From IMG/VR virus record IMGVR_UViG_3300046002_008717, positions 1 to 64,000 of that record: 64,000 nucleotides of DNA. The stretch is one strand, 5' to 3'. The notes beneath the pieces are model-generated. The model was not told the origin of the DNA, did no database searches, and saw only the letters and a list, made by a program, of their open reading frames with translations. Below, one piece after another: positions 2,419 through 63,059 of the stretch. Each line of letters opens with the position of its first letter. Position 1 is the first letter of the stretch. This DNA is from a virus. The position numbers and the translations under genes are program-made.

Positions 2419-4251
2419 ATGGCATACAGAATAGTATTAAGAAGAGATACATCAGTAAATTGGGAAGAAAACAATCCAGTATTACTATCAGGTGAACCCG
2501 GATATGAAACAGATTCACATATGATGAAGATGGGTGATGGTATTACTCCCTGGGCATCATTGGATTATTATATTACTGGATCAACCGGTCCAATAGGAGC
2601 AACTGGTGCTAACGGTATGGGTATTACTGGAGCTGCAGGTGCTGATGGTATAGGAATTACCGGACCTACTGGAGCTACTGGTGCTGATGGTATAGGAATT
2701 ACCGGATCGGGAATTATAAATAAAACAAAAATAGAATTAGATGCTTTAATATTATCTAATGGATTAGTAGCAGGAGCTATTTATAAAATAACTGGTGTTC
2801 ATCCAACTCTTTATGATGATGGAACTACATCAGGGACTACTATATTTTTACAAGCTCTTACATCGAATACACTTTCCAAAGATGGACACGGTGAATTTTG
2901 GAATCCAAAATATAATAATACATTGTCTGGTTTTGGTATATGGAGCAATAGAAGTACATTAACGAGTGGATATGGTGCAACAGCGGTTGGCATTTTTATT
3001 CATAATGAAATTATTACTGCAAGCACCGGTGCAACAGCTAATATGGTTTGCGTTCCTTTTTCATCAGCACTTTCAGAAAGATATAGTTATGTTGCTATTA
3101 CTGATCCAATTGGAGATTGGTCGATAGCAACCAGTATTACTGGGAATACATCCGGTGCTACATTAACGATTTCTAGTTATACCCCAGCAAATTATAACAT
3201 AAATGATAAAGTTATTTGGGGTGGATATTCATGGACTAATGTTAATGGAAATATAGGTTCAGCTTCTAATGTTTTAAGTTTAGATGCAGAATGGACCAAA
3301 GACATATATTCTATTACTGATTATAATAGAGTCATAGATGTTATTTCATATGATTATATTAATGATTTAATTGTTAGACGACTGGAGGTTGAAGGCAATA
3401 ATGAAGTTACTACTAGCAAAGAAAATATTGATCATTTAAGTTCGCAATATGGATTATCATTTGGTAATGAACCAATAAATGTGTTTATGTGGGGAAATGT
3501 AACTCTATATAATGGGATTTTTAATAATAAATGCGATAGCAGTTACTTTGAATGTATTAACTTCCAGGGAAGTTATATAAATGGCAATACCATTAAAACG
3601 AATAGTGCTTTTTATAATAATTTAATTATAGAATCAAGTTATTTAGAGTATTTAGAAATAAAAGATGTTAGTTATATCTATGGTAATATTTTATTAGGAT
3701 CGACCATACGGGATACGCAGATAATTGATCATAGTCGTATTATATCAAATAGCATGACAAATTCCGGCATATATTCTCAATCGATGATTAATAATGGAAT
3801 TATTAATAATAATACTATATACATAGGTGAAATTGGTTCAATTATAAATAATAATGGATCCATTGAAAATAATTTGGTATGGCAAGGTTCCATTAAAAAT
3901 AATCATATTAAGCAAGGAGGAATTAGTGGATGTGATTTAAAAATAGGACATATTGAAAATTTAATATTAAATTTATCTACAATAAGTAATACCGCGTTAT
4001 ATACGGAATCGTATATAAGTAATAGTATTTTTAATAATAGTTCAATAGAATTAGGTTTACTGAATCCATTATCTACAAAAACGATTACTAATCTGATAAT
4101 GGAAACGTCTGATATTATCGTTGATATCTCATTAGCCACATTAATATTTGGGAGTTATTCTAAAACAGTTTACCAAAGACCCGATGGAACTGTAAAAATA
4201 AGATGGTATAATGATAGCGATGTTCTTGCTATAGGAGATATAACAGATTAA
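2419..4251 (+). CDS. Tail fibre / receptor-binding protein, paralogue of the preceding gene
   Basis: A 610-residue protein with the same plan as its upstream neighbour: Mtd-like N-domain ([20 protein letters not shown]), collagen-like Gly-X-Y segment (~53-107), a shared middle domain ([20 protein letters not shown]), a beta-helix ladder full of INNN and SYI steps (~400-560), and a C-terminal FGSYSKTVYQRPDG cap. The ends are highly conserved between the two copies while the central and helix regions differ, as expected after duplication and diversification of receptor-binding parts. Only 18 bases separate the two genes, so they are probably co-transcribed from the promoter-like motif at 607. 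Confidence 0.8.
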   Translation: MAYRIVLRRDTSVNWEENNPVLLSGEPGYETDSHMMKMGDGITPWASLDYYITGSTGPIGATGANGMGITGAAGADGIGITGPTGATGADGIGITGSGIINKTKIELDALILSNGLVAGAIYKITGVHPTLYDDGTTSGTTIFLQALTSNTLSKDGHGEFWNPKYNNTLSGFGIWSNRSTLTSGYGATAVGIFIHNEIITASTGATANMVCVPFSSALSERYSYVAITDPIGDWSIATSITGNTSGATLTISSYTPANYNINDKVIWGGYSWTNVNGNIGSASNVLSLDAEWTKDIYSITDYNRVIDVISYDYINDLIVRRLEVEGNNEVTTSKENIDHLSSQYGLSFGNEPINVFMWGNVTLYNGIFNNKCDSSYFECINFQGSYINGNTIKTNSAFYNNLIIESSYLEYLEIKDVSYIYGNILLGSTIRDTQIIDHSRIISNSMTNSGIYSQSMINNGIINNNTIYIGEIGSIINNNGSIENNLVWQGSIKNNHIKQGGISGCDLKIGHIENLILNLSTISNTALYTESYISNSIFNNSSIELGLLNPLSTKTITNLIMETSDIIVDISLATLIFGSYSKTVYQRPDGTVKIRWYNDSDVLAIGDITD

Positions 4252-4266
4252 AAAAATAAAAATATA

Positions 4267-5703
4267 ATGATAATATATTCACCAAAAACAGTAAATGATT
4301 TACAAGCAAATTCAGAGGGAATAATAGATGGGGTAGTTCCAAATTCTCTCAATTTAACAATAATAGGTACACCGTACAAACCTCTAGGATTAGCATTACA
4401 ACCACCAATAATATTAGCAACTTCAAGCGGGATACATACCAGTACTATTTCAAAAGTTATATATGATTTTACATTTAATGAATCGGGTCAAAATGATCAC
4501 ATAACTACGCTAGCATTTAATGATTTGGAAGGAATTGTTAGTAATTTTTTTCCTAGCAACATGACAGGTCTAACTACATTATCATTACCCTTATTAAGTA
4601 TAGTGATGGGAGATTTCAAGCCACAATATTTACCGTTACTTACAACTTTAAATATAAATTCATTAGAAAATATAGTTGGTAATTTTAATCCAAATAATAT
4701 GAATATATTAACTACGTTAAGTGCTCCTTCATTAAAAAGAATATATGATATAAATATCACTAGCATCCCATTATTGTCAACTTTAAGTTTACCAATGTTA
4801 ACTACTTTACATAATTTTAATAATACATTACCCATAACAACATTAGATTTATCGAGTTTAACAACATGTAATATATTTTCACCAACTTTAAATAATCTAA
4901 CTACATTAAGTCTAGATAATCTAACTACATGTAAAACGTTTGAACCTATTTTTGGTTTAGTAACATCACTGACCATGAATTTATTAGATGCAACGTCTTC
5001 TTTTGGCCCGAGAGGAGATTCTATAACATCACTGGTTATGACATCGCCAACATTGGTAAACTTTCATCCTATGTATATGAATGCATTAGCAACATATACA
5101 AATACAACGTTATTAAATCTTAGTGGTTATTTTTATATGTCGGGGATGAATGCAATGACGTATCTCAGTTTTACTAATCTAACTACGATAGTAAAAGAAT
5201 TCTATCTTCAATATGATTTTCCATTATTGAATTCTATCGATTTTCCTATGTTAGCAAGTGTTGGTATATTTGAATTCACAAATCTTAATAGTTTAACAAT
5301 CATAAATTTACCCAGTTTACAAACAGCAACTAGAATAGCTATTTCTAATATGCCACTATTAACTACAATTAGTCTTCTCTCGTTAGTATCAGTAGGCGGC
5401 ACAATAACAACATCGGTTACACCTAATATAGAAAGTATAAATATTGGTACTATAGGTACGCTTAAAAATATCGGAGGTAATATATCGTTTACTGATATAA
5501 AGTTAACATTAGTATCGGTTGAACACATATTAGGAGTACTTGCATCATTAGATGGTACAAATGGAACTACCACTTGGGGTACAGGAAGAACCTTAAATAT
5601 ATCAGGAGGTACTAGTGCAGGTTTAGCTTCGTTATCATCACAAGGAATAATAGATAGAAATGTTATAATTGCTAGAGGTGGTACAGTAACAATGAATGCT
5701 TAA
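4267..5703 (+). CDS. Leucine-rich-repeat-like (BspA-like) virion or adhesin protein
   Basis: A 478-residue protein made of about twenty irregular repeats of 22-24 residues with the pattern LTTLSLPxL..I...F.P, resembling BspA-type leucine-rich repeats (established family: surface-binding solenoids). There is no signal peptide and no catalytic motif. It follows the two fibre genes at short spacing and precedes the peptidoglycan enzyme, so a virion adhesin or fibre-tip role is the most natural reading. The C-terminus (GTNGTTTWGTGRTLNISGG, ~430-450) resembles the end cap of other phage LRR proteins. Function beyond binding is unknown. Confidence 0.65.
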   Translation: MIIYSPKTVNDLQANSEGIIDGVVPNSLNLTIIGTPYKPLGLALQPPIILATSSGIHTSTISKVIYDFTFNESGQNDHITTLAFNDLEGIVSNFFPSNMTGLTTLSLPLLSIVMGDFKPQYLPLLTTLNINSLENIVGNFNPNNMNILTTLSAPSLKRIYDINITSIPLLSTLSLPMLTTLHNFNNTLPITTLDLSSLTTCNIFSPTLNNLTTLSLDNLTTCKTFEPIFGLVTSLTMNLLDATSSFGPRGDSITSLVMTSPTLVNFHPMYMNALATYTNTTLLNLSGYFYMSGMNAMTYLSFTNLTTIVKEFYLQYDFPLLNSIDFPMLASVGIFEFTNLNSLTIINLPSLQTATRIAISNMPLLTTISLLSLVSVGGTITTSVTPNIESINIGTIGTLKNIGGNISFTDIKLTLVSVEHILGVLASLDGTNGTTTWGTGRTLNISGGTSAGLASLSSQGIIDRNVIIARGGTVTMNA

Positions 5704-5722
5704 ATATAAAGATATATAAGAC

Positions 5723-6871
5723 ATGGAAAATAAAATGATGAATTTCGAGGAATTCGAGAAAATTAATGAATCTATAGACATAGATTCTATACAAAAAATA
5801 ACTAATCTTGATAGAGATATTGTAAAAAATTCTATATCTAATTTATCAGTGGGTAAGGAATTATCACAATTAGACAAAAATGATATTAAGGTATTACAAG
5901 GTATAGTTGCTGTAGTACCAGATGGTATTTATGGAGCTAAAACTAGAAGTGCGGTTAAGAAATATCAGGAATCAACATTAAAAATGTCAGATTCAGATCC
6001 GATTAAATCTAAAAGACCTGATGGTATATGGGGTCCGGAAACAGCAAAAATAGCATTTCCTGACAAAGCCAATACAGAAAAATCTTCAAAAATAGAAAAT
6101 ACTAAAAAGCCTAAAGAAAAAAATCAAAAAACTTATTTATTCTTCAATGGTAATAAATTGGATTTTATAGAAAATGGTAAAATAGTAAAAACGTGGAAAG
6201 CAATATCAGGTAGAACATATTATCACTGGAACGTAAAGCCTGAGATATGGGAAAAAAGATATACTATTTCACCAGTAGAATTATCAAAAGTAAAGCAGGA
6301 AGGACCAATACCTCAGGGAAACTATACGCTAGGTTCTACTCAAACTAGACCGACCGATGATAAGTGGAGAACTGATCAGGAATACATTAAAAAAACATTA
6401 TCGGAAGTTACAGTAGCTGGTTTACCTGGTGCAAATTTTCAGCCAGATACCCACGAATTCTACGATAATACACCATTATCACTAATGGCCTGGGGTAACT
6501 GTAGATGGGCAATTATACCAAATAAAGATACTAATACCTATGGAAGAGGAAGTTTCTATTTGCATGGTGGAGGAACTCCTGGATCTATAGGATGTATAGA
6601 TCTAGTAACAGAATCACCAGAATTTCTGAAATATTACGAAGCATGGAGGAAAAAAACGGGAAATAGTACAATAGCATTAAAAGTTGATTATTCAACTTTT
6701 AATAAAAATGTACCTATTGACGTAGCATCACAACCATATAAAATGATATCGCCTAAACGACCTGATAAAATAACATGGTATAACGAAACAGATTCGGTAA
6801 TAAAAGATACACTAACTAAGAATAAAATACGTATAAGATATCCGGAAACTTTGAATGCTAGGAAAATATAA
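5723..6871 (+). CDS. Peptidoglycan-active protein: PG-binding domain plus L,D-transpeptidase/DUF2778-like domain
   Basis: 382 residues. Residues ~50-110 hold a peptidoglycan-binding repeat (PDGIYGAKTRSAVKKYQ, then PDGIWGPETAKIAF). Residues ~130-340 look like a YkuD/DUF2778 catalytic domain. The active-site signature is H281-GGGTPG-S288-I-G-C291, matching the His...Ser-x-Gly-Cys pattern of L,D-transpeptidases and Tlde1-like effectors. The N-terminus (NFEEFEKINE, I14-x-E16) resembles a T4 capsid-targeting peptide with a prohead-protease site, as in 20485, 21764 and 22410. It may therefore be packaged in the head and delivered with DNA, rather than serve only as a lysis enzyme; that is inference. 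A GATATATA motif lies 5 bases before the start. Confidence 0.75.
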   Translation: MENKMMNFEEFEKINESIDIDSIQKITNLDRDIVKNSISNLSVGKELSQLDKNDIKVLQGIVAVVPDGIYGAKTRSAVKKYQESTLKMSDSDPIKSKRPDGIWGPETAKIAFPDKANTEKSSKIENTKKPKEKNQKTYLFFNGNKLDFIENGKIVKTWKAISGRTYYHWNVKPEIWEKRYTISPVELSKVKQEGPIPQGNYTLGSTQTRPTDDKWRTDQEYIKKTLSEVTVAGLPGANFQPDTHEFYDNTPLSLMAWGNCRWAIIPNKDTNTYGRGSFYLHGGGTPGSIGCIDLVTESPEFLKYYEAWRKKTGNSTIALKVDYSTFNKNVPIDVASQPYKMISPKRPDKITWYNETDSVIKDTLTKNKIRIRYPETLNARKI

Positions 6872-6938
6872 TTTTTTTTACTCGAAATTTTATTTTATTT
6901 TTGCATAAAAATATAAATGCAACATCAAATAAATTAAA

Positions 6939-9002
6939 ATGAGCGAAGAAAAACCTAAACCCCCTTATAACAGTAGTAATTCAGATAATACTGGATCCAA
7001 TGATCCAGTATATAAAAAATCACAAAACAAAACTCCATTTCTAGATCAATACTCAACAGATCTTACGTTTATGGCTGCTAACGAAGAACTCGATATTATA
7101 ATAGGAAGAGATGAGGAAATAGAAAGGGTCTCACAGATATTATCAAGAAGGAAAAAAAATAATCCAATTTTAATAGGAGAACCGGGTGTTGGTAAAACTG
7201 CAATTGCTGAGGGCCTTGCTATAAAAATAATACAAAGAAGAGTTTCTAGAGGATTACTTAATAAGAGAGTGCTTATGCTAGATTTGGGTTCATTAGTAGC
7301 AGGAACCAAATATAGAGGACAGTTTGAAGAAAGAATTAAATCTATATTAGAAGAATTAAAAAACAATAAGGATATCATAATTTTTATAGATGAAATACAT
7401 ACCATGATAGGTGCTGGTGGATCATCTGGATCCTTAGATGCATCTAATATGTTTAAACCTGTTTTATCCAGAGGGGAAATTCAGTGTATAGGTGCTACTA
7501 CGTTAAATGAATATAGACAATATATAGAAAAAGACGGAGCTTTAGAAAGAAGATTTCAAAAAGTAATAATAAATCCACCTAGTGCAGAAGTTACTATAGA
7601 TATATTAAACAACGTAAAAAGTAAATACGAAGAGCATCATAATGTTACTTATACTCAAGAGGCTATAATAAACTGTGTAAAGCTAACCGAACGCTATATA
7701 ACGGATCGAAATTTTCCAGACAAAGCTTTAGATGCTTTAGATGAAGCGGGCAGTAGAACGCAACTACATGATGTTAAAATACCTAATAGCATAACTAAGT
7801 TAGAAAAAGATTTAACGATTCTGGAGGTAAATAAAAAAGCATCAGTTAAAAAACAGGATTATGAAAAAGCTGCTAGTTTTAGAGATGAACAGAAAAAAAT
7901 GGAAATCACTCTAGAAAGAGAATTAAAACTATGGGAAGAAAAGCTAAAGGATAAAAGAAAAATAGTAGATGGCGATAAAGTAGCAGAGGTCGTTTCCATG
8001 ATGTCAGGTGTTCCTCTTAAGAAAGTATCGGAAGGGGAAAATACGAAACTTGCAAATATGGATGCCATATTAAAAAGCAAAGTTATCGGTCAAGATCATG
8101 CAATAGAAAAAATAGCTAGATCTATATTAAGAAATAGGATGGGATTAAAAGATCCAAATAAACCAATCGGATCATTTCTTTTTTTAGGTCCTACTGGTGT
8201 GGGTAAAACACATCTAGCAAAAAAACTAGCTGAATATATGTTTGGCGATAGTGATTCTTTGATAAGAGTGGACATGAGCGAATATATGGAAAAATTCGAT
8301 GCAACTAAAATGATAGGATCTCCTCCTGGATACGTTGGTCATGAAGATGGTGGTCAATTAACAGAAAAAGTTAGAAGAAAACCATATTCAATTATACTTT
8401 TCGACGAAGTTGAAAAAGCTCATCCTGACATATTCAATATATTATTACAGGTTTTGGATGAAGGACATTTAACAGACGGAGCAGGAAGAAAAATCGATTT
8501 CAAAAATACTCTTATTATATTAACATCAAACGTAGGTCAAAGAAGATTACAAGAATTTGGATCGGGAGTAGGTTTTTCTACAGCTAGTAAAAACACACAA
8601 AAAGACATTGAAAATGAAATGCTGTTAAAAAAAGAATTGGAGAAAAAATTTCAACCTGAATTTATAAATAGATTAGATGATATCATATACTTTAAAAATT
8701 TAAACCAGGAAGATATACTAAAAGTACTAAATATAGAATTAGGAAAAACTTTACCTAGATTGGAAGATATGGGTTATAAAATTATAGTAACACAAGATCT
8801 TAAAGAAAAAATAGCAAACATTGGATTTGATCCTAAATTTGGAGCTAGACCATTAAAAAGAATAATACAAAAATATATAGAGGATACGCTAGCTGATCTT
8901 ATGGTTCAAAATAAACTACCAGCAGGATCTACAGTAACTCTATCATACGACAAAACAAAAGAAAACACATTACAATATCCAGTTAAGATTAAAATAAAAT
9001 AA
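6939..9002 (+). CDS. clpC-like: ClpC-like AAA+ unfoldase lacking the N-terminal adaptor domain
   Basis: 687 residues with two AAA+ modules: D1 Walker A G80-EPGVGKT-87 with IIFIDEIHTMIGAG, and D2 Walker A G417-PTGVGKT-424 with ILFDEVEKAHPD. The linker (~295-320) has a UVR-like helix (QDYEKAASFRDEQKKME) as in ClpC. The C-terminus (FGARPLKRIIQKYIEDTLAD) is the ClpB D2-small domain. The Clp N-domain (about 140 residues) is absent; only ~45 disordered residues precede D1. A VGF tripeptide (544-546) sits where ClpC carries its ClpP-docking loop, so docking to host ClpP is plausible. Spacing and a downstream terminator (9007-9042) suggest a single-gene unit. It could act in head assembly, host takeover or proteolysis. 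Confidence 0.9.
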   Translation: MSEEKPKPPYNSSNSDNTGSNDPVYKKSQNKTPFLDQYSTDLTFMAANEELDIIIGRDEEIERVSQILSRRKKNNPILIGEPGVGKTAIAEGLAIKIIQRRVSRGLLNKRVLMLDLGSLVAGTKYRGQFEERIKSILEELKNNKDIIIFIDEIHTMIGAGGSSGSLDASNMFKPVLSRGEIQCIGATTLNEYRQYIEKDGALERRFQKVIINPPSAEVTIDILNNVKSKYEEHHNVTYTQEAIINCVKLTERYITDRNFPDKALDALDEAGSRTQLHDVKIPNSITKLEKDLTILEVNKKASVKKQDYEKAASFRDEQKKMEITLERELKLWEEKLKDKRKIVDGDKVAEVVSMMSGVPLKKVSEGENTKLANMDAILKSKVIGQDHAIEKIARSILRNRMGLKDPNKPIGSFLFLGPTGVGKTHLAKKLAEYMFGDSDSLIRVDMSEYMEKFDATKMIGSPPGYVGHEDGGQLTEKVRRKPYSIILFDEVEKAHPDIFNILLQVLDEGHLTDGAGRKIDFKNTLIILTSNVGQRRLQEFGSGVGFSTASKNTQKDIENEMLLKKELEKKFQPEFINRLDDIIYFKNLNQEDILKVLNIELGKTLPRLEDMGYKIIVTQDLKEKIANIGFDPKFGARPLKRIIQKYIEDTLADLMVQNKLPAGSTVTLSYDKTKENTLQYPVKIKIK

Positions 9003-21763: not shown

Positions 21764-22408
21764 ATGATAAAAGATTTTCATAAATTTTCAATATCTGAGG
21801 ATGATGGCTATAAAGAAAATACAGTCATTAAAAAAAGGGATACCGGACAAAGCTCAAAAGATAGCTATTTTATTTTTTTAACAGAAACATTAAATTGTAT
21901 TGCTGAGATGGTAAATATAATATCTCAATACGATAACAACATTACCAAAAACATAAGCGAGCAAGAATATAATTTAGGTAAATCTTTAAAAAAAGATAAA
22001 AATTCTCATAAAAAATTATGGGATGAATTATTAAAAATAGGTTCAGTATTAATTTCTAAAAAACCAACAACCAATCCTGTAGATCAAATAGTAGATAAAT
22101 ATAAGGAATCTCTAAAAGAATTAGAGGATCAAGAAAAGAGCGGTAAATTAAGTCCAGAAAAAGCAATCGAAAATAAAAAAGCATTGCACGATGAAGCTAA
22201 TAAACACCTAAAAGACGGAAAAAGTGTATTTTATAAAAAAGCACCGAATGCTTTATTGCATTACAATGAAGCAATAATTACATTTGCAAAAGGTGCTTCT
22301 ATTGAAATCGATAATATGGAAAAAGAAAAAGAAGATAAAGATAATAAACATAATAGATTATCCGATGTTACTTTTGCCGTTTCTAATATACTAACTAAAA
22401 ATAAATAA
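21764..22408 (+). CDS. Helical protein with capsid-targeting-like N-terminus
   Basis: 214 residues, Lys/Glu-rich, predicted mostly alpha-helical. The N-terminus FHKFSISED contains I10-S-E12, matching the T4-type prohead protease consensus (Leu/Ile-x-Glu). No enzymatic motif or known family is visible. It lies in a tight three-gene run with its helical neighbours. Probably a capsid-internal or scaffold-associated protein; otherwise unknown. Confidence 0.6.
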   Translation: MIKDFHKFSISEDDGYKENTVIKKRDTGQSSKDSYFIFLTETLNCIAEMVNIISQYDNNITKNISEQEYNLGKSLKKDKNSHKKLWDELLKIGSVLISKKPTTNPVDQIVDKYKESLKELEDQEKSGKLSPEKAIENKKALHDEANKHLKDGKSVFYKKAPNALLHYNEAIITFAKGASIEIDNMEKEKEDKDNKHNRLSDVTFAVSNILTKNK

Positions 22409-22409
22409 T

Positions 22410-23255
22410 ATGGATATAATATCAATAAATGAAGGATTTTTATCAGATGTTAAAGCATTTTTATCAGGAGAAGGTGAGAATAGTGGTAAAAAAGCATTAA
22501 GCAACGAAGAAGTACATTCAGAAAATTATATGTATTCCGCTGAATTATTGAGAGGATCCATAATTACACTAGCTAATAAATTAGATAATATATTGGCTGG
22601 TATCAATAGGGATGATAGAGATGCAGCAAAATCATCAATATCAGAAATAATTGGATTTTTAAACGAATCATTTAAGAAACTTCAGGAGATAATAGATAAT
22701 ACCAAAACCGGCTCGAATAAAGAAAAAAGAACAGTAATCGACGAGATATCAAATAAGATTAATATCTATAATAGGCCAGGTGGTATAATAGATAAATGGA
22801 AAAGCGAATACTTAACTGCAAATCACATTACGTCCTCATTTTTAGACAAGGGCAGATCATTAATGGAAGAAGCAAGATCTCTTATGAATGATGTTGAAAA
22901 TGTCAAAAAACTAGAGAATAGTATTAAGGACATGGATATGAGAAGCGTTATAAAAAGGGGGGCTGATAAATATAACGGAAAAAAAGAAGAAAAGGTCAGA
23001 AAATATGATCCTGACCAAGATCCAGAGATAGTAAAAAAATACAGAGAAAAATTACATAAATTATTAATAACGAATAATGAAACCGGTCCATATACATCAA
23101 AAGATGATGAGAGTACAAAAGCTGCACAAAATATACTGGGAAGTGTAACAGGGGAGGTTTATGGAAATAATGGAACCAGAAATTTCGATCAATATCAGGA
23201 TGATATAAACGTATTAATAAATAATCAGGAAAAAATTAATAAGCTATTAAAATAA
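22410..23255 (+). CDS. Helical protein with capsid-targeting-like N-terminus
   Basis: 281 residues. The N-terminus has I6-N-E8 soon after the start (MDIISINEGF), again a possible prohead-protease site. The centre is helical (RDAAKSSISEIIGFLNESF), and the C-terminus (DDINVLINNQEKINKLLK) resembles the end of the protein at 20485 (NKDKIKELIIK), suggesting a shared C-terminal domain. Directly after its stop begins copy 1 of the duplicated structured element (23257-23400). Function unknown; grouped with the two upstream genes as head-internal candidates. Confidence 0.6.
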   Translation: MDIISINEGFLSDVKAFLSGEGENSGKKALSNEEVHSENYMYSAELLRGSIITLANKLDNILAGINRDDRDAAKSSISEIIGFLNESFKKLQEIIDNTKTGSNKEKRTVIDEISNKINIYNRPGGIIDKWKSEYLTANHITSSFLDKGRSLMEEARSLMNDVENVKKLENSIKDMDMRSVIKRGADKYNGKKEEKVRKYDPDQDPEIVKKYREKLHKLLITNNETGPYTSKDDESTKAAQNILGSVTGEVYGNNGTRNFDQYQDDINVLINNQEKINKLLK

Positions 23256-23256
23256 A

Positions 23257-23400
23257 AAACGTTAAAGTTTTAAAAATATGAAACCATTTCTCATTTCATA
23301 GCTAAGATAATTATCTAATGGGACCCGGCGATGAATACTATTACTATATAGTAATCTAAGAGGGTTTAATTTATATTCACTAGTTGAACCATAAACTTAT
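23257..23400 (+). ncRNA. Duplicated structured intergenic element, copy 1
   Basis: 144 bases aligned without gaps to 61778-61921; the last 100 bases (23301-23400) match at 98 positions. Structures seen: a leader hairpin AAAAC/GTTTT (23256-23271), palindrome AGATAATTATCT (23305-23316), hairpin palindrome ATTACTATATAGTAAT (23340-23355), and stem GGTTTAA/TTGAACC (23363-23390). GGGTT could instead pair with GACCC (23322-23326), and GGTTT with AAACC (23281-23285), so alternative folds compete. In this copy GTTGAAC (23383-23389) also pairs with GTTCAAC at 23401-23407. It lies between a helical-protein gene and uvsX. It is non-coding; function unknown. Confidence 0.75.
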
Positions 23401-23475
23401 GTTCAACACTAGACTAACACGAAACAAAACCACATTTTTACAGTACTATTAAAGATATAATATAATAACTTTAAT

Positions 23476-24657
23476 ATGGCTAAATCAACAGTAAAAGAAA
23501 AAGTGTCAGGTACTTTTTCATTCCTTGCACTAGATAAGGAACTTTCTAAAATACCCGGATTCGAAACAGGATCAATATTAACAACAAATACATTTAGTGA
23601 AGTTACCGGATGGATCTCAACTGGTTCGTATCTTCTTAATGCACAGATATCTGGATCTCTATTTGGTGGTATACCTAATAATAGATCATTTGGTATAATG
23701 GGTGATCCCGGTACAGGTAAATCTTTCGTATGCCTTAATGTAGTTAGAGAAGCACAAAAGGATGATTACTATGTAATATATTGCGATACCGAAGGAGCTG
23801 TTGATAAAACGGGGGCACTTAAATTTGGTATTGATCCGGATAAAATGAGATACCAACCTATACAAACGGTTTCACAGTTTTTAACTTTCGTTACTAATCT
23901 ATTAGATCTAGTTAAAAAAGCTAGAGCCAGAGGTGAGGAACCAAAAATTTTGGTTGTAGTAGATTCATTAGGGATGCTAAGTACAGATAAGGAATTGGCA
24001 GATGCGATAAAAGGTCACAATGCTGCAGATATGGGGGCAAAAGCAAAAGAACTTAGAAAATTATTCAGAGTAATAACATTAGATTTAACTGCTGCTAGAA
24101 TTCCTTTATTGTGTACTAATCATACTTACTCAGGTGGAGGATTTATGCCAACTAAGGAAAGTTCAGGAGGAGATGGTCCTATTTTTGCTATGTCCGTAGT
24201 TTCTTTTCTATCTAAAGCACAGTTAAAAGACGGTGCAGGTACTAAAACAGGGATAGTAGTAACATCGACATTAAAGAAAAGTAGATTTACTATACCGGAG
24301 CAAATAAAATTTCATATATCATTTGCAAATGGTATGAATCCATATGTAGGTTTAGAAAATTATGTATCTTGGGAAACTTGCGGGATAGAAAGAGGTAAAT
24401 ACGAAGAAGTTAAAAATGCAGAGGGCAAGAAAGAACAAGTCTTTAAATCAAGCGCAACGTCTCAAAGATGGGGTATTAGACATTTAGGAAAAACCGTTGC
24501 ATCTACCCAATTATTTACTGCAGAAGTTTTTACTAAGGAAGTACTAGAAGCTTTAAATGAAAAAGCAATAAAACCTAAATTCAAATTCCCTGATTTAACT
24601 GATCATTCTGAACTTCTTGGTGTATTTGATGATGTTGAATTTGACGATGCCGAATAA
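23476..24657 (+). CDS. uvsX: UvsX-like RecA-family recombinase
   Basis: 393 residues, as in T4 UvsX. Walker A G76-DPGTGKS-83, then YVIYCDTEGAVD (catalytic-type Glu region), Walker B ILVVVDSLG (158-166), and the DNA-binding loop region near NHTYSGGGFMPTKESSGG. It pairs strands in recombination-dependent replication. Neighbours are the gp41-like helicase and gp46/47 nuclease genes, a recombination-replication module. The acidic C-terminus (DDVEFDDAE) is typical of UvsX. Its start follows the structured element by about 75 bases. Confidence 0.93.
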   Translation: MAKSTVKEKVSGTFSFLALDKELSKIPGFETGSILTTNTFSEVTGWISTGSYLLNAQISGSLFGGIPNNRSFGIMGDPGTGKSFVCLNVVREAQKDDYYVIYCDTEGAVDKTGALKFGIDPDKMRYQPIQTVSQFLTFVTNLLDLVKKARARGEEPKILVVVDSLGMLSTDKELADAIKGHNAADMGAKAKELRKLFRVITLDLTAARIPLLCTNHTYSGGGFMPTKESSGGDGPIFAMSVVSFLSKAQLKDGAGTKTGIVVTSTLKKSRFTIPEQIKFHISFANGMNPYVGLENYVSWETCGIERGKYEEVKNAEGKKEQVFKSSATSQRWGIRHLGKTVASTQLFTAEVFTKEVLEALNEKAIKPKFKFPDLTDHSELLGVFDDVEFDDAE

Positions 24658-60633: not shown

Positions 60634-61188
60634 ATGGCAGGATTATCACACTATAACAATGGAATATCGGCAATCAATAAACAGGAGCCTGTTTATTTGA
60701 ATCAATTCGAAGTAAGTATAATACCTCCTGGAGTTATAGCGGGAGGTAAAATATTACTGGAGCATGTCACAAAAGTTAGTGGACTTTCTCTAGATAAAAA
60801 TCCAGGAATAATACAACAGAAATTTAAATTCGCTAAAAGGAATTATGCTGGTGGTAAACCTGAGAATACCTTTATGGATTTGAGTTTAAGTTTTAATGTC
60901 AATTTGGACGAATCTAATTCAATGTATGTTTTCAAAACATTAAGACAATGGTCGGATTTAATATACAATCCGCTAACTGGAGCAATGGGATTAAAAAATG
61001 ATTACGTCGGAACTATAGTCATATCGATATTTAATAAGCAGGGTGATGTATATAGAAGAATTACATGTAAAGATGCATTTCCAATTAAACCTATAACTCC
61101 GATGAATCTAAATTATACATCTACAGATCTATATAAAATAGATGATATGGTTTGGGCAGTTGATGTTTGGGAGGATCTATTCATATAA
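60634..61188 (+). CDS. gp19: Tail tube protein (T4 gp19), paralogue 1
   Basis: 184 residues; T4 gp19 has 163. LNQFEVSIIPPGV, then KVSGLSL, LRQWSDLIYNPLTGAMGLK and YVGTIVISIFNKQGDVYRRI are tube-protein features. The next gene repeats these at similar spacing, so the tube may be made of two protein types, or one may act at the tip or end. Placed 25 bases after the sheath gene. Confidence 0.92.
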   Translation: MAGLSHYNNGISAINKQEPVYLNQFEVSIIPPGVIAGGKILLEHVTKVSGLSLDKNPGIIQQKFKFAKRNYAGGKPENTFMDLSLSFNVNLDESNSMYVFKTLRQWSDLIYNPLTGAMGLKNDYVGTIVISIFNKQGDVYRRITCKDAFPIKPITPMNLNYTSTDLYKIDDMVWAVDVWEDLFI

Positions 61189-61203: not shown

Positions 61204-61779
61204 ATGTCAGGATTATCACATTTTAACAATTCAAAAGCGGGAATACTTAATAGAGAACCAGTTTTTCTTAACCAATTCTCTCTTATTATAAATCCTCCAG
61301 CAGGAATACTGGATGCAGGAAAACAATTTAATGGAGAAAGTATACTTGCACAGCAAGTAAAATCCATAACAGGATTGGCTGTAGATATCACACCAGCACA
61401 AACAGTGGAGCAACATTATAAATTTGCTACCAGAAGATATGCAGGCGGTGAGCCATCTACTAGTGATATGGCGTTATCTATGGAATTTGAAGTCAATTTG
61501 AATGATAAGAATTCTATGGAAGTATATAAAATATTAAGACAGTGGTCAGATTTAATCTACAACCCTCTAACTGGAGCTATGGGATTGAAAACAGATTACG
61601 TTGGATCTATGCTTATTACTGTATTTAACAAAAGAGGTGATATATTTAGAAAAATTAGAATACCATCATGTTTCTTAAGTGAAGCTATAAACCCAATGGA
61701 TCTTGATTATGAAACTCCAGCTATTTATACAATAACTGCTTCATGGATATGCGATACGTGGGAAGATTTATTCATATAA
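61204..61779 (+). CDS. gp19-like: Tail tube protein (T4 gp19), paralogue 2
   Basis: 191 residues, homologous to the previous protein (LRQWSDLIYNPLTGAMGLK identical; YVGSMLITVFNKRGDIFRKI). A few insertions in the first half (FNGESILAQQVK). Its TAA stop is immediately followed by copy 2 of the structured element and then a terminator, so it probably ends the sheath/tube operon. Confidence 0.92.
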   Translation: MSGLSHFNNSKAGILNREPVFLNQFSLIINPPAGILDAGKQFNGESILAQQVKSITGLAVDITPAQTVEQHYKFATRRYAGGEPSTSDMALSMEFEVNLNDKNSMEVYKILRQWSDLIYNPLTGAMGLKTDYVGSMLITVFNKRGDIFRKIRIPSCFLSEAINPMDLDYETPAIYTITASWICDTWEDLFI

Positions 61780-61921
61780 ACGTTAAAGTTTTCAAAATCC
61801 GAAACCTTATGTCAATTACAAGCTAAGATAATTATCTAATGGGACCCGGCGATAAATACTATTACTATATAGTAATCTAAGAGGGTTTAATTTATATTCA
61901 CTAGTTGAACCCTAAACTTAT
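61778..61921 (+). ncRNA. Duplicated structured intergenic element, copy 2
   Basis: Starts within the stop codon of the tube gene. The core (61822-61921) matches copy 1 at 98 of 100 bases, with palindromes AGATAATTATCT and ATTACTATATAGTAAT kept and GGGTTTAA/TTGAACCC forming an 8-bp stem (one G.U) here. The core is far better conserved than the leader, where conserved islands (AACGTTAAAGTTTT, GAAACC) alternate with variable ones. A terminator follows (61960-61984). Likely a 3'-UTR-derived or independent RNA; function unknown. Confidence 0.75.
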
Positions 61922-61959
61922 TATCTAACCCCAGTTTTTGAATAAAAGTAATAATTAAT

Positions 61960-61984
61960 AAAGACCTAATTTGGTCTTTTTTTT
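61960..61984 (+). terminator. Rho-independent terminator
   Basis: AAAGACC (61960-61966), loop TAATTT, GGTCTTT (61973-61979) and T tract. It ends the sheath/tube transcript or the structured RNA. Confidence 0.85.
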
Positions 61985-62030: not shown

Positions 62031-63059
62031 ATGCAATTAGACATATCACCAGAAGAAATATTGAAAAATAAAGAAATGCAAGGTGGTCTTATTTATGATG
62101 AAGAAATTATAAGTGAAACACCAAAGTCTGATCTAATAGAAACTACACAAGATATAAAGGAAAGTATAGTTTTGGATCCAGAAATAATTTCTGTACCAAA
62201 AGTTGAATCTTCTCTTCCTCCTTCATTTGAATTGGGATGGAAAAATATACCGTTACATATATTACCATCTCGCGGTATTTTTTATCCAGAAGGAACTAGA
62301 ATGGCAATATATCCAGCAGAAGTTAATGAGATACGACATTATTCTACAATAGATGAAGAAGATAGACTAGGTGTCGAAGAAAAACTTGGCTATATATTAG
62401 AGAGGTGTCTTAAAATAGATTTTCCTAATGCTGGTATAGTTTCATATAAACATCTAAAACAAGAGGATAGATTTTTTGTAATAATGGCAATACGTGATTT
62501 ATCGTTCGTTGTAGGTGAAAATGTAATATTACTTACACCCAATAAAAAATGTAAAGATACAGACGAGTGTCCATTTTCTAATGGTATAGAACTTAGAACC
62601 GGTGCTCTAGATTTTTATGAGCTTGATAAGAAAGTATTAAAATATTATAATCCAAAAACTAGAAGTTTTGTATTTAATGTTAAAAAAATTAATAAAAGTA
62701 TAGAAATGTTTATACCTAGTGTAGGAATAAATCAAGCGATTACTAATTTTATGGTATATGCAAATAATAATTCTATAGAAGTGGATGAGGGTTTTATAAA
62801 AATTGCTCCTTTCCTATTTGACGATTGGCAGAAAGTAACCAATACTAGTATACTTTTAGCATTCAGAGAATCTGATAATTGGACTAAAGAAGAATATAGT
62901 TTATATTTCGAATTATCAGAAATTATAAAAATCGGTACAAAACTAGGCATTAAACAAAGATGCCCAGTTTGTGATGAGGAGGTCACTGCCGATATTGCCT
63001 TTCCCTTTGGGCTCAGATCTCTTTTCGTTATTTCAGATATCTTTGGACAATTACTTTGA
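62031..63059 (+). CDS. Baseplate hub / tail assembly protein (T4 gp26-like in position and type)
   Basis: 342 residues. LPSRGIFYPEGTRMAIYP (~77-94) is the hallmark of the gp26-like hub protein of marine T4-like phages. CKDTDEC (~178) and CPVC (~311) suggest a metal site. It sits just upstream of a short overlapping frame and of the tape-measure-like gene, the position of tail chaperones. Its stop lies in the sequence CTT-TGA-T, a strong +1 frameshift candidate (63054-63060) that would extend it by 57 residues. Confidence 0.75.
   Translation: MQLDISPEEILKNKEMQGGLIYDEEIISETPKSDLIETTQDIKESIVLDPEIISVPKVESSLPPSFELGWKNIPLHILPSRGIFYPEGTRMAIYPAEVNEIRHYSTIDEEDRLGVEEKLGYILERCLKIDFPNAGIVSYKHLKQEDRFFVIMAIRDLSFVVGENVILLTPNKKCKDTDECPFSNGIELRTGALDFYELDKKVLKYYNPKTRSFVFNVKKINKSIEMFIPSVGINQAITNFMVYANNNSIEVDEGFIKIAPFLFDDWQKVTNTSILLAFRESDNWTKEEYSLYFELSEIIKIGTKLGIKQRCPVCDEEVTADIAFPFGLRSLFVISDIFGQLL

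What the first reader, a model, noticed from the sequence alone, without database searches (positions are those of the whole stretch)
23257..23400. A ~144-base structured non-coding element present twice, 38.5 kb apart
Copies at 23257-23400 and 61778-61921 align without gaps; 98 of 100 core bases match although the element is non-coding in an AT-rich genome. Both begin at the stop codon of the upstream gene and contain the same palindromes and a GGGTTTAA/TTGAACC stem with competing partners (GACCC, AAACC). GC-rich GGGACCCGGCGAT stands out from its surroundings. I do not recognise it as a known riboswitch, ribozyme, intron or tRNA. Possible roles: 3'-UTR processing or stability element, small RNA, recombination or replication signal, or a mobile element.
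Basis: seen in the sequence. Interest (0 to 1): 0.85.

Follow-up and report, generated by a model that had tools for sequence, protein, structure and literature searches.

The report
Putative replication origin of large phages
A short non-coding DNA element, present twice in this uncultivated T4-like phage and once or twice in dozens of its relatives, sits where the two DNA strands switch their base bias, so it is probably the place where these large phages start copying their genomes.

Summary
The repeat is real: 92% identity over 144 bases, 98% over the last 100, and no third copy in the 111,728-base record. It is not a known RNA (no Rfam match) and does not fold better than shuffled sequence.

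About 30 distinct relatives lie in IMG/VR phage contigs, none in named phages. They share ordered boxes: GAAAC, 17-18 variable bases, CTAARA, a covarying dyad, CCCNGG, usually GAGCCC, then C-rich units resembling CCCAAACTTTA. Most precede uvsX. Others lie elsewhere, antisense to neighbours or between divergent genes, so it is not a 3'-UTR element.

The decisive observation is strand asymmetry. In three 117-435 kb records the unconstrained best T-A switch at fourfold sites falls within 0.7 kb of the element. In G005, nearby genes to the left are all negative and to the right all positive. Minus-strand genes follow the DNA-strand sign, so this is not codon preference. uvsX loci with the element show the step (10 of 11); those without do not (9 of 23 positive; p=0.0002).

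Best reading: a cis-acting origin of bidirectional replication, a sequence-defined family unlike T4, whose origins share no motif. The priming mechanism is inferred. Four of ten genomes show no clear step.

The parts
23257..23400 (+). Copy 1 of the element, between the stop of ORF 22410-23255 and uvsX
61778..61921 (+). Copy 2 of the element, between a tail-tube gene (61204-61779) and ORF 62031-63059
23260..23270 (+). Upstream box CGTTAAAGTTT (copy 1), shared with a subset of relatives; inverted relative to the tail units AAACTTTA
61781..61791 (+). Upstream box CGTTAAAGTTT (copy 2)
23280..23284 (+). GAAAC box (copy 1), near-invariant; followed by a variable 17-base spacer (-35/-30-like position)
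61801..61805 (+). GAAAC box (copy 2)
23302..23307 (+). CTAARA box (copy 1; -10-like TAAGAT with the next base)
61823..61828 (+). CTAARA box (copy 2)
23310..23319 (+). Dyad H1 (ATTA-TC-TAAT), the only inverted repeat that clearly covaries across relatives
61831..61840 (+). Dyad H1 (copy 2)
23324..23328 (+). CCCGG box (copy 1), CCCNGG in relatives
61845..61849 (+). CCCGG box (copy 2)
23354..23364 (+). ATCTAAGAGGG box (copy 1); most relatives read ATCTWAGAGCCC
61910..61939 (+). C-rich tail of copy 2: CCCTAAACTTA and CCCCAGTTTTT units; tandem or dispersed arrays of such units in relatives
61960..61979 (+). Intrinsic-terminator-like hairpin after copy 2
23437..23466 (+). sigma-70-like promoter TTTACA-18-TATAAT before uvsX, downstream of copy 1
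23476..24657 (+). uvsX (RecA-like recombinase), usual downstream neighbour of the element in relatives

Best explanation
The element is a cis-acting origin of bidirectional DNA replication in a clade of large, uncultivated T4-like phages, normally placed just upstream of uvsX; the window's genome carries two copies. SHOWN by computation: a conserved ordered set of DNA boxes, 1-2 copies per genome; a covarying dyad; in several genomes a sharp switch of DNA-strand base bias at the element, with T excess on the strand that would be leading on both sides. INFERRED: forks start here; a trans-acting factor (phage initiator or activator) recognises the boxes; initiation probably resembles T4 oriF/oriG, where a promoter (here GAAAC - 17/18 nt - CTAARAT, or the nearby uvsX promoter) primes synthesis in adjacent A+T-rich DNA, with the repeated CCCAAACTTTA-like units acting as iteron-like binding or opening sites.
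For: (1) Unconstrained change-point fits of fourfold-site T-A: G005 252.0 kb (range 251.5-252.5) vs element 251,672; G030 241.5 kb vs 240,846; G036 68.0 kb vs 68,445; G031 358.0 kb (357-362.5) vs 361,600. The other switch in G005 and G030 is diffuse and roughly opposite. (2) Gene by gene within 14 kb in G005, all 15 genes left are negative and all 12 right positive; the sign changes across the element's gap; G030 and G036 nearly as clean. (3) Minus-strand genes carry the same top-strand sign as plus-strand genes in each arm of G030 and G031, and shift the same way in G005, so the bias belongs to the DNA strand. (4) uvsX loci with the element: mean step +0.147, 10/11 positive; without it: -0.007, 9/23 positive, p=0.0002. 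uvsX itself T-A +0.196 vs +0.008. (5) Away from uvsX the step is also mostly positive: window copy 2 +0.130+-0.043, L206 +0.152+-0.061, G012b +0.132+-0.058, G020 +0.133+-0.065. (6) Orientation relative to genes is free. (7) H1 covariation 0/5000. (8) Minus-strand genes are rarer on the right arm in G031 (p=8e-6), as expected for forks leaving the element.
Against: G018, G037, G004 and G034 show no clear step by the genome-wide scan, and G003 only a weak one. At the window's own copies the steps are modest (about 2-3 standard errors) and the genome-wide optimum lies at 70 kb, 8 kb from copy 2. GC skew does not switch, and DNA outside ORFs does not differ between arms. G005, G030 and G036 are one clade, so not fully independent. 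Resolution is a few hundred bases and includes the start of uvsX. The duplex near the element is not unusually weak compared with other intergenic gaps. No initiator protein was identified.
Confidence: 0.72

Rival explanations
1. Promoter plus regulatory RNA: GAAAC-17-CTAARAT is a specialised promoter and the conserved downstream 80 bases are a small RNA or a 5' leader (about 150 nt ending at the 61960-61979 terminator for copy 2; leader of a glycosyltransferase-like gene in the G018 family).
For: Rigid 17-18 nt spacing with a variable spacer between two conserved boxes, then near-perfect conservation (spacer 71% vs 100% in L008/L083; 59% vs 98% in w1/w2). In the G018 family the element ends at the start codon ATGAGCCC. 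Terminator after copy 2.
Against: No stable or conserved fold; P2 pairing only weakly supported and chosen by hand; the two-box motif does not recur at other intergenic sites in the genome; does not explain the strand-bias switch. Not exclusive of an origin, since T4 origins contain promoters.
Confidence: 0.13
2. Replication terminus, packaging (pac/cos) or segregation/resolution site: the strand-bias switch marks an end rather than a start.
For: A switch of sign is expected at both ends and starts of replication, and which is which rests on the usual leading-strand T>A convention (one search gives only position and sign).
Against: Gene co-orientation (minus-strand genes rarer where forks would run rightward) and the sharp/diffuse contrast fit an origin at the element; two copies 38.5 kb apart and placement beside uvsX are unusual for a terminus; copy 2 is 4.5 kb from terminase, other copies are not near it.
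Confidence: 0.09
3. 3'-UTR processing, stability or Rho-type termination element.
For: In most genomes it begins 5-45 bases after a co-oriented stop codon and its tail is C-rich and G-poor.
Against: G012a is antisense to both neighbours, the G018 family lies between divergent genes, L192 beside tRNA genes; only 1-2 copies per genome; no explanation of the strand bias.
Confidence: 0.03
4. Mobile element or recent duplication without function.
For: Two near-identical copies in G000 and in G006 (92-95%), more alike than between genomes; occurs at several genomic places.
Against: No genome had more than two clear copies; position upstream of uvsX is kept across distant lineages; boxes conserved while spacers drift.
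Confidence: 0.03

Closest known systems
Bacteriophage T4 origins oriF (uvsY) and oriG (34)
   Same: Origins of about 100 bp in a T4-like phage, one near a recombination gene, several per genome; promoter with a -30 box and a sigma-70-like -10 followed by A+T-rich DNA; several T4 origins also lie near shifts in nucleotide bias (PMC3016281).
   Different: T4 origins share no motif, while this is one conserved sequence family. No MotA homologue was detected in ten of these records. A C-rich repeat tail and dyad are not described for oriF/oriG in that review. R-loop formation untested.
T4 oriE
   Same: Evenly spaced direct repeats (iterons), also found in close relatives (PMC3016281).
   Different: Different repeat (CCCAAACTTTA-like, 25-35 base spacing where tandem), plus upstream boxes and dyad; the role of the T4 iterons is itself unproven.
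Huge phages with skew indicating bidirectional replication (Al-Shayeb et al. 2020, PMC7162821)
   Same: About 30% of huge phage genomes show GC skew read as bidirectional replication; the closest annotated uvsX genes are from such phages.
   Different: I found no conserved origin sequence described there; the element was not found near uvsX in three huge-phage records checked, and here the signal is T-A rather than GC skew.
RNA-based origins of mycobacteriophage prophages (PMC7157519)
   Same: A non-coding region, possibly transcribed, acting as origin without a linked initiator gene.
   Different: Those serve prophage maintenance next to parABS; no sequence relation was tested.

Membership tests
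T4 oriF/oriG-type R-loop origin | Marks a start of replication | tested here: inconclusive
   Indirect: strand-bias switch at the element in G005, G030, G036, nearly G031; not clear in four others. Replication itself not measured.
T4 oriF/oriG-type R-loop origin | Promoter with a -30 activator box and -10 sequence within the minimal origin | tested here: inconclusive
   GAAAC-17/18-CTAARAT has the geometry, but no expression data; uvsX promoter 23437-23466 nearby
T4 oriF/oriG-type R-loop origin | MotA-dependent middle-mode transcription | tested here: not met
   No PF09114 (MotA) match in 10 records; another activator is possible, and records may be incomplete
[quoted passage not shown]
   Weak duplex near the element (top 0.01-3.6% of the genome) but not exceptional among intergenic gaps
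T4 oriF/oriG-type R-loop origin | Persistent R-loop | not testable with these tools
   needs experiment
Iteron-type origin | Direct repeats bound by an initiator | tested here: inconclusive
   C-rich units repeated 2-5 times in many members, tandem in L147 and L150; absent as an array in the G018 family; no initiator identified
Known structured RNA (Rfam 15) | Covariance-model match | tested here: not met
Conserved structured RNA of a new kind | Conserved fold with compensatory changes | tested here: not met
   No consensus fold, no excess stability; only one short A+T-rich dyad covaries, which a DNA dyad would also do
Intrinsic terminator / 3'-UTR element | Always 3' of a co-oriented gene | tested here: not met
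   G012a, G018 family, L192
MITE or insertion element | Many copies per genome | tested here: not met
   At most two clear copies per genome
MITE or insertion element | Terminal inverted repeats and target-site duplications | not tested
   not examined in detail

The most novel reading that the evidence does not exclude
A new, sequence-defined family of replication origins shared across T4-like large phages (records up to 435 kb), recognised by an unknown phage-encoded initiator or activator that coevolves with its boxes, able to occupy different intergenic sites and to be present once or twice per genome, in contrast to T4, whose origins share no motif.
Probability: 0.55. Interest if true: 0.82.

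Novelty: new variant of a known kind. Interest (0 to 1): 0.7.

Why it matters
How very large phages start genome replication is poorly known: skew plots suggest bidirectional replication, but a conserved origin sequence has not, to my knowledge, been defined for them. A short portable element with clear boxes makes the question directly testable: read-depth profiles, plasmid replication in infected cells, and a search for the protein that binds it. It also gives a way to find origins in uncultivated phages from sequence alone.

Tried and rejected
Rfam with gathering and relaxed thresholds: nothing relevant. RNA folding on both strands and consensus folding: no support. Named phages by blastn: no relative; the uvsX neighbourhoods of three annotated huge phages (including a Lak phage) lack it. 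Genome-collection pattern scan: no convincing member, hits look like chance matches in genes. A general promoter: the GAAAC-N16-18-TAARA motif is not enriched elsewhere in the genome (7 vs 6.9 expected, only the two elements intergenic). Rho-type or 3'-UTR element: contradicted by placements. CRISPR-repeat mimic (GAAAC ending): considered, but sequence before GAAAC is not conserved. Self-cleaving ribozyme: considered because of conserved unpaired-looking boxes, dropped for lack of conserved helices. P2 pairing (GG.. with GAGCC): 31 of 5000 permutations reach it, with hand-chosen segments, so only weak. A+T-rich unwinding region: not exceptional among intergenic gaps.

Full report
Observation. 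The two copies are real and specific. They match over 144 bases (92%), with the last 100 bases 98% identical, and no third full copy exists in the 111,728-base virus record. The window is a T4-like phage: uvsX follows copy 1, a DnaB-type helicase lies further on, and terminase, tail sheath and two tail-tube genes precede copy 2.

Relatives. uvsX homologues from IMG/VR gave the first homologues, nearly all just upstream of uvsX. A sequence model, then degenerate patterns, extended the set to about 30 distinct members in uncultivated phage contigs of 6 to 435 kb. Most genomes have one clear copy; G000, G006 and G012 have two. No named phage carries it, and the nearest annotated uvsX proteins, from huge uncultured phages, are at most about 40% identical.

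Anatomy. The conserved order is: GAAAC (sometimes GGAAC); a spacer of 17-18 bases of free sequence; CTAARA; a dyad H1; CCCNGG; usually ATCTWAGAGCCC; and a C-rich, G-poor tail with units like CCCAAACTTTA, expanded to tandem repeats in L147 and L150. A subset has CGTTAAAGTTT upstream. The spacer drifts while the boxes stay. H1 changes on both sides together: TCAAT/ATTGA, TGATT/AATCA, TTTAC/GTAAA, AATTA/TAATT; halves match within a sequence far better than when swapped among sequences (0 of 5000). Energies are near zero, so a DNA dyad is at least as likely as an RNA hairpin. The tail and box motifs are essentially absent elsewhere in the genome.

Placement. Besides uvsX, the element occurs after a tail-tube gene (window copy 2), before a sugar-nucleotide-type gene (L009b), antisense to both neighbours (G012a), between divergent genes with its end overlapping a start codon (G018 family), after another gene in L206, and beside tRNA genes (L192). 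This excludes a dedicated 3'-UTR role.

Strand asymmetry. I fetched ten records whole or nearly so and fitted T-A at fourfold-degenerate sites, allowing for gene strand. Without using the element's position, the best low-to-high switch fell at 252.0 kb in G005 (element 251.67), 241.5 kb in G030 (240.85), 68.0 kb in G036 (68.45) and 358.0 kb in G031 (361.6). Around the element in G005 every gene to the left is A-rich and every gene to the right T-rich at these sites; G030 and G036 are nearly as clean. In those three the maximum-likelihood change point lies about 350-830 bases after GAAAC, which is the gap plus the first part of uvsX; in G031 it lies 3-4 kb before GAAAC. Minus-strand genes show the same DNA-strand sign in G030 and G031 and shift the same way in G005, so this is not a codon preference of the uvsX gene cluster. 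As a control, 23 uvsX loci without the element directly upstream (one of them, L015, has it 2.9 kb away) show no step, while 10 of 11 with it do. Away from uvsX the step is smaller but mostly positive.

Limits. Four records (G018, G037, G004, G034) show no clear genome-wide step, G003 is weak, and for the window's genome the optimum is 8 kb from copy 2, with local steps of 2-3 standard errors. GC skew does not switch and DNA outside ORFs does not differ between arms. A conservative combined test over lineages at the element gives p about 3e-4, from ranks entered by hand. The three clearest genomes are related.

Interpretation. A switch that is sharp at the element and diffuse on the opposite side, with genes tending to run away from the element on the right arm, is the signature of a fixed origin. 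T4 offers a model: oriF and oriG are about 100 bp with a promoter and an A+T-rich region; several T4 origins lie near shifts in base bias; oriE has iterons; yet T4 origins share no motif (PMC3016281). Here one motif family recurs. How initiation is primed is inferred, not shown; MotA was not found.

Verdict. Probable replication origin of a new sequence family in large T4-like phages: a known kind of function, a new element.

Noticed in passing
L150 (2600-4600) and L228, IMGVR_UViG_3300017917_004998: uvsX is split into several ORFs by intein-like sequences, one apparently a split intein whose C-terminal half has its own start codon.
   Followed up: no
window 60634-61188 and 61204-61779: Two adjacent tail-tube-like genes of the same family in tandem.
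   Followed up: no
window 21764-22408 and 22410-23255: The two genes before uvsX fall in one rapidly changing family with no useful database match (weak SMODS-like hit for the second); in relatives it appears as one or two genes of very different length.
   Followed up: no
L187, L190, L191, L207, L210, L219, L230 (G018 family): The 3' box of the element coincides with the first codons of a glycosyltransferase-like ORF (ATGAGCCCCCARTTTTTA, MSPQFLVIAYYT), so one sequence may serve two purposes.
   Followed up: partly
L147, about 2740-2900: Several tandem copies of a 35-base unit CCCTAAACTTTAATTATAATATACACGTAACACTA after the element.
   Followed up: partly
G003 about 4000-8000: A stretch with extreme fourfold-site G and T bias in plus-strand ORFs, unlike the rest of the genome.
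   Followed up: no
G030:268163-268209 and G033:21520-21552: Partial, weak second matches to the element model, possibly degenerate extra copies.
   Followed up: no
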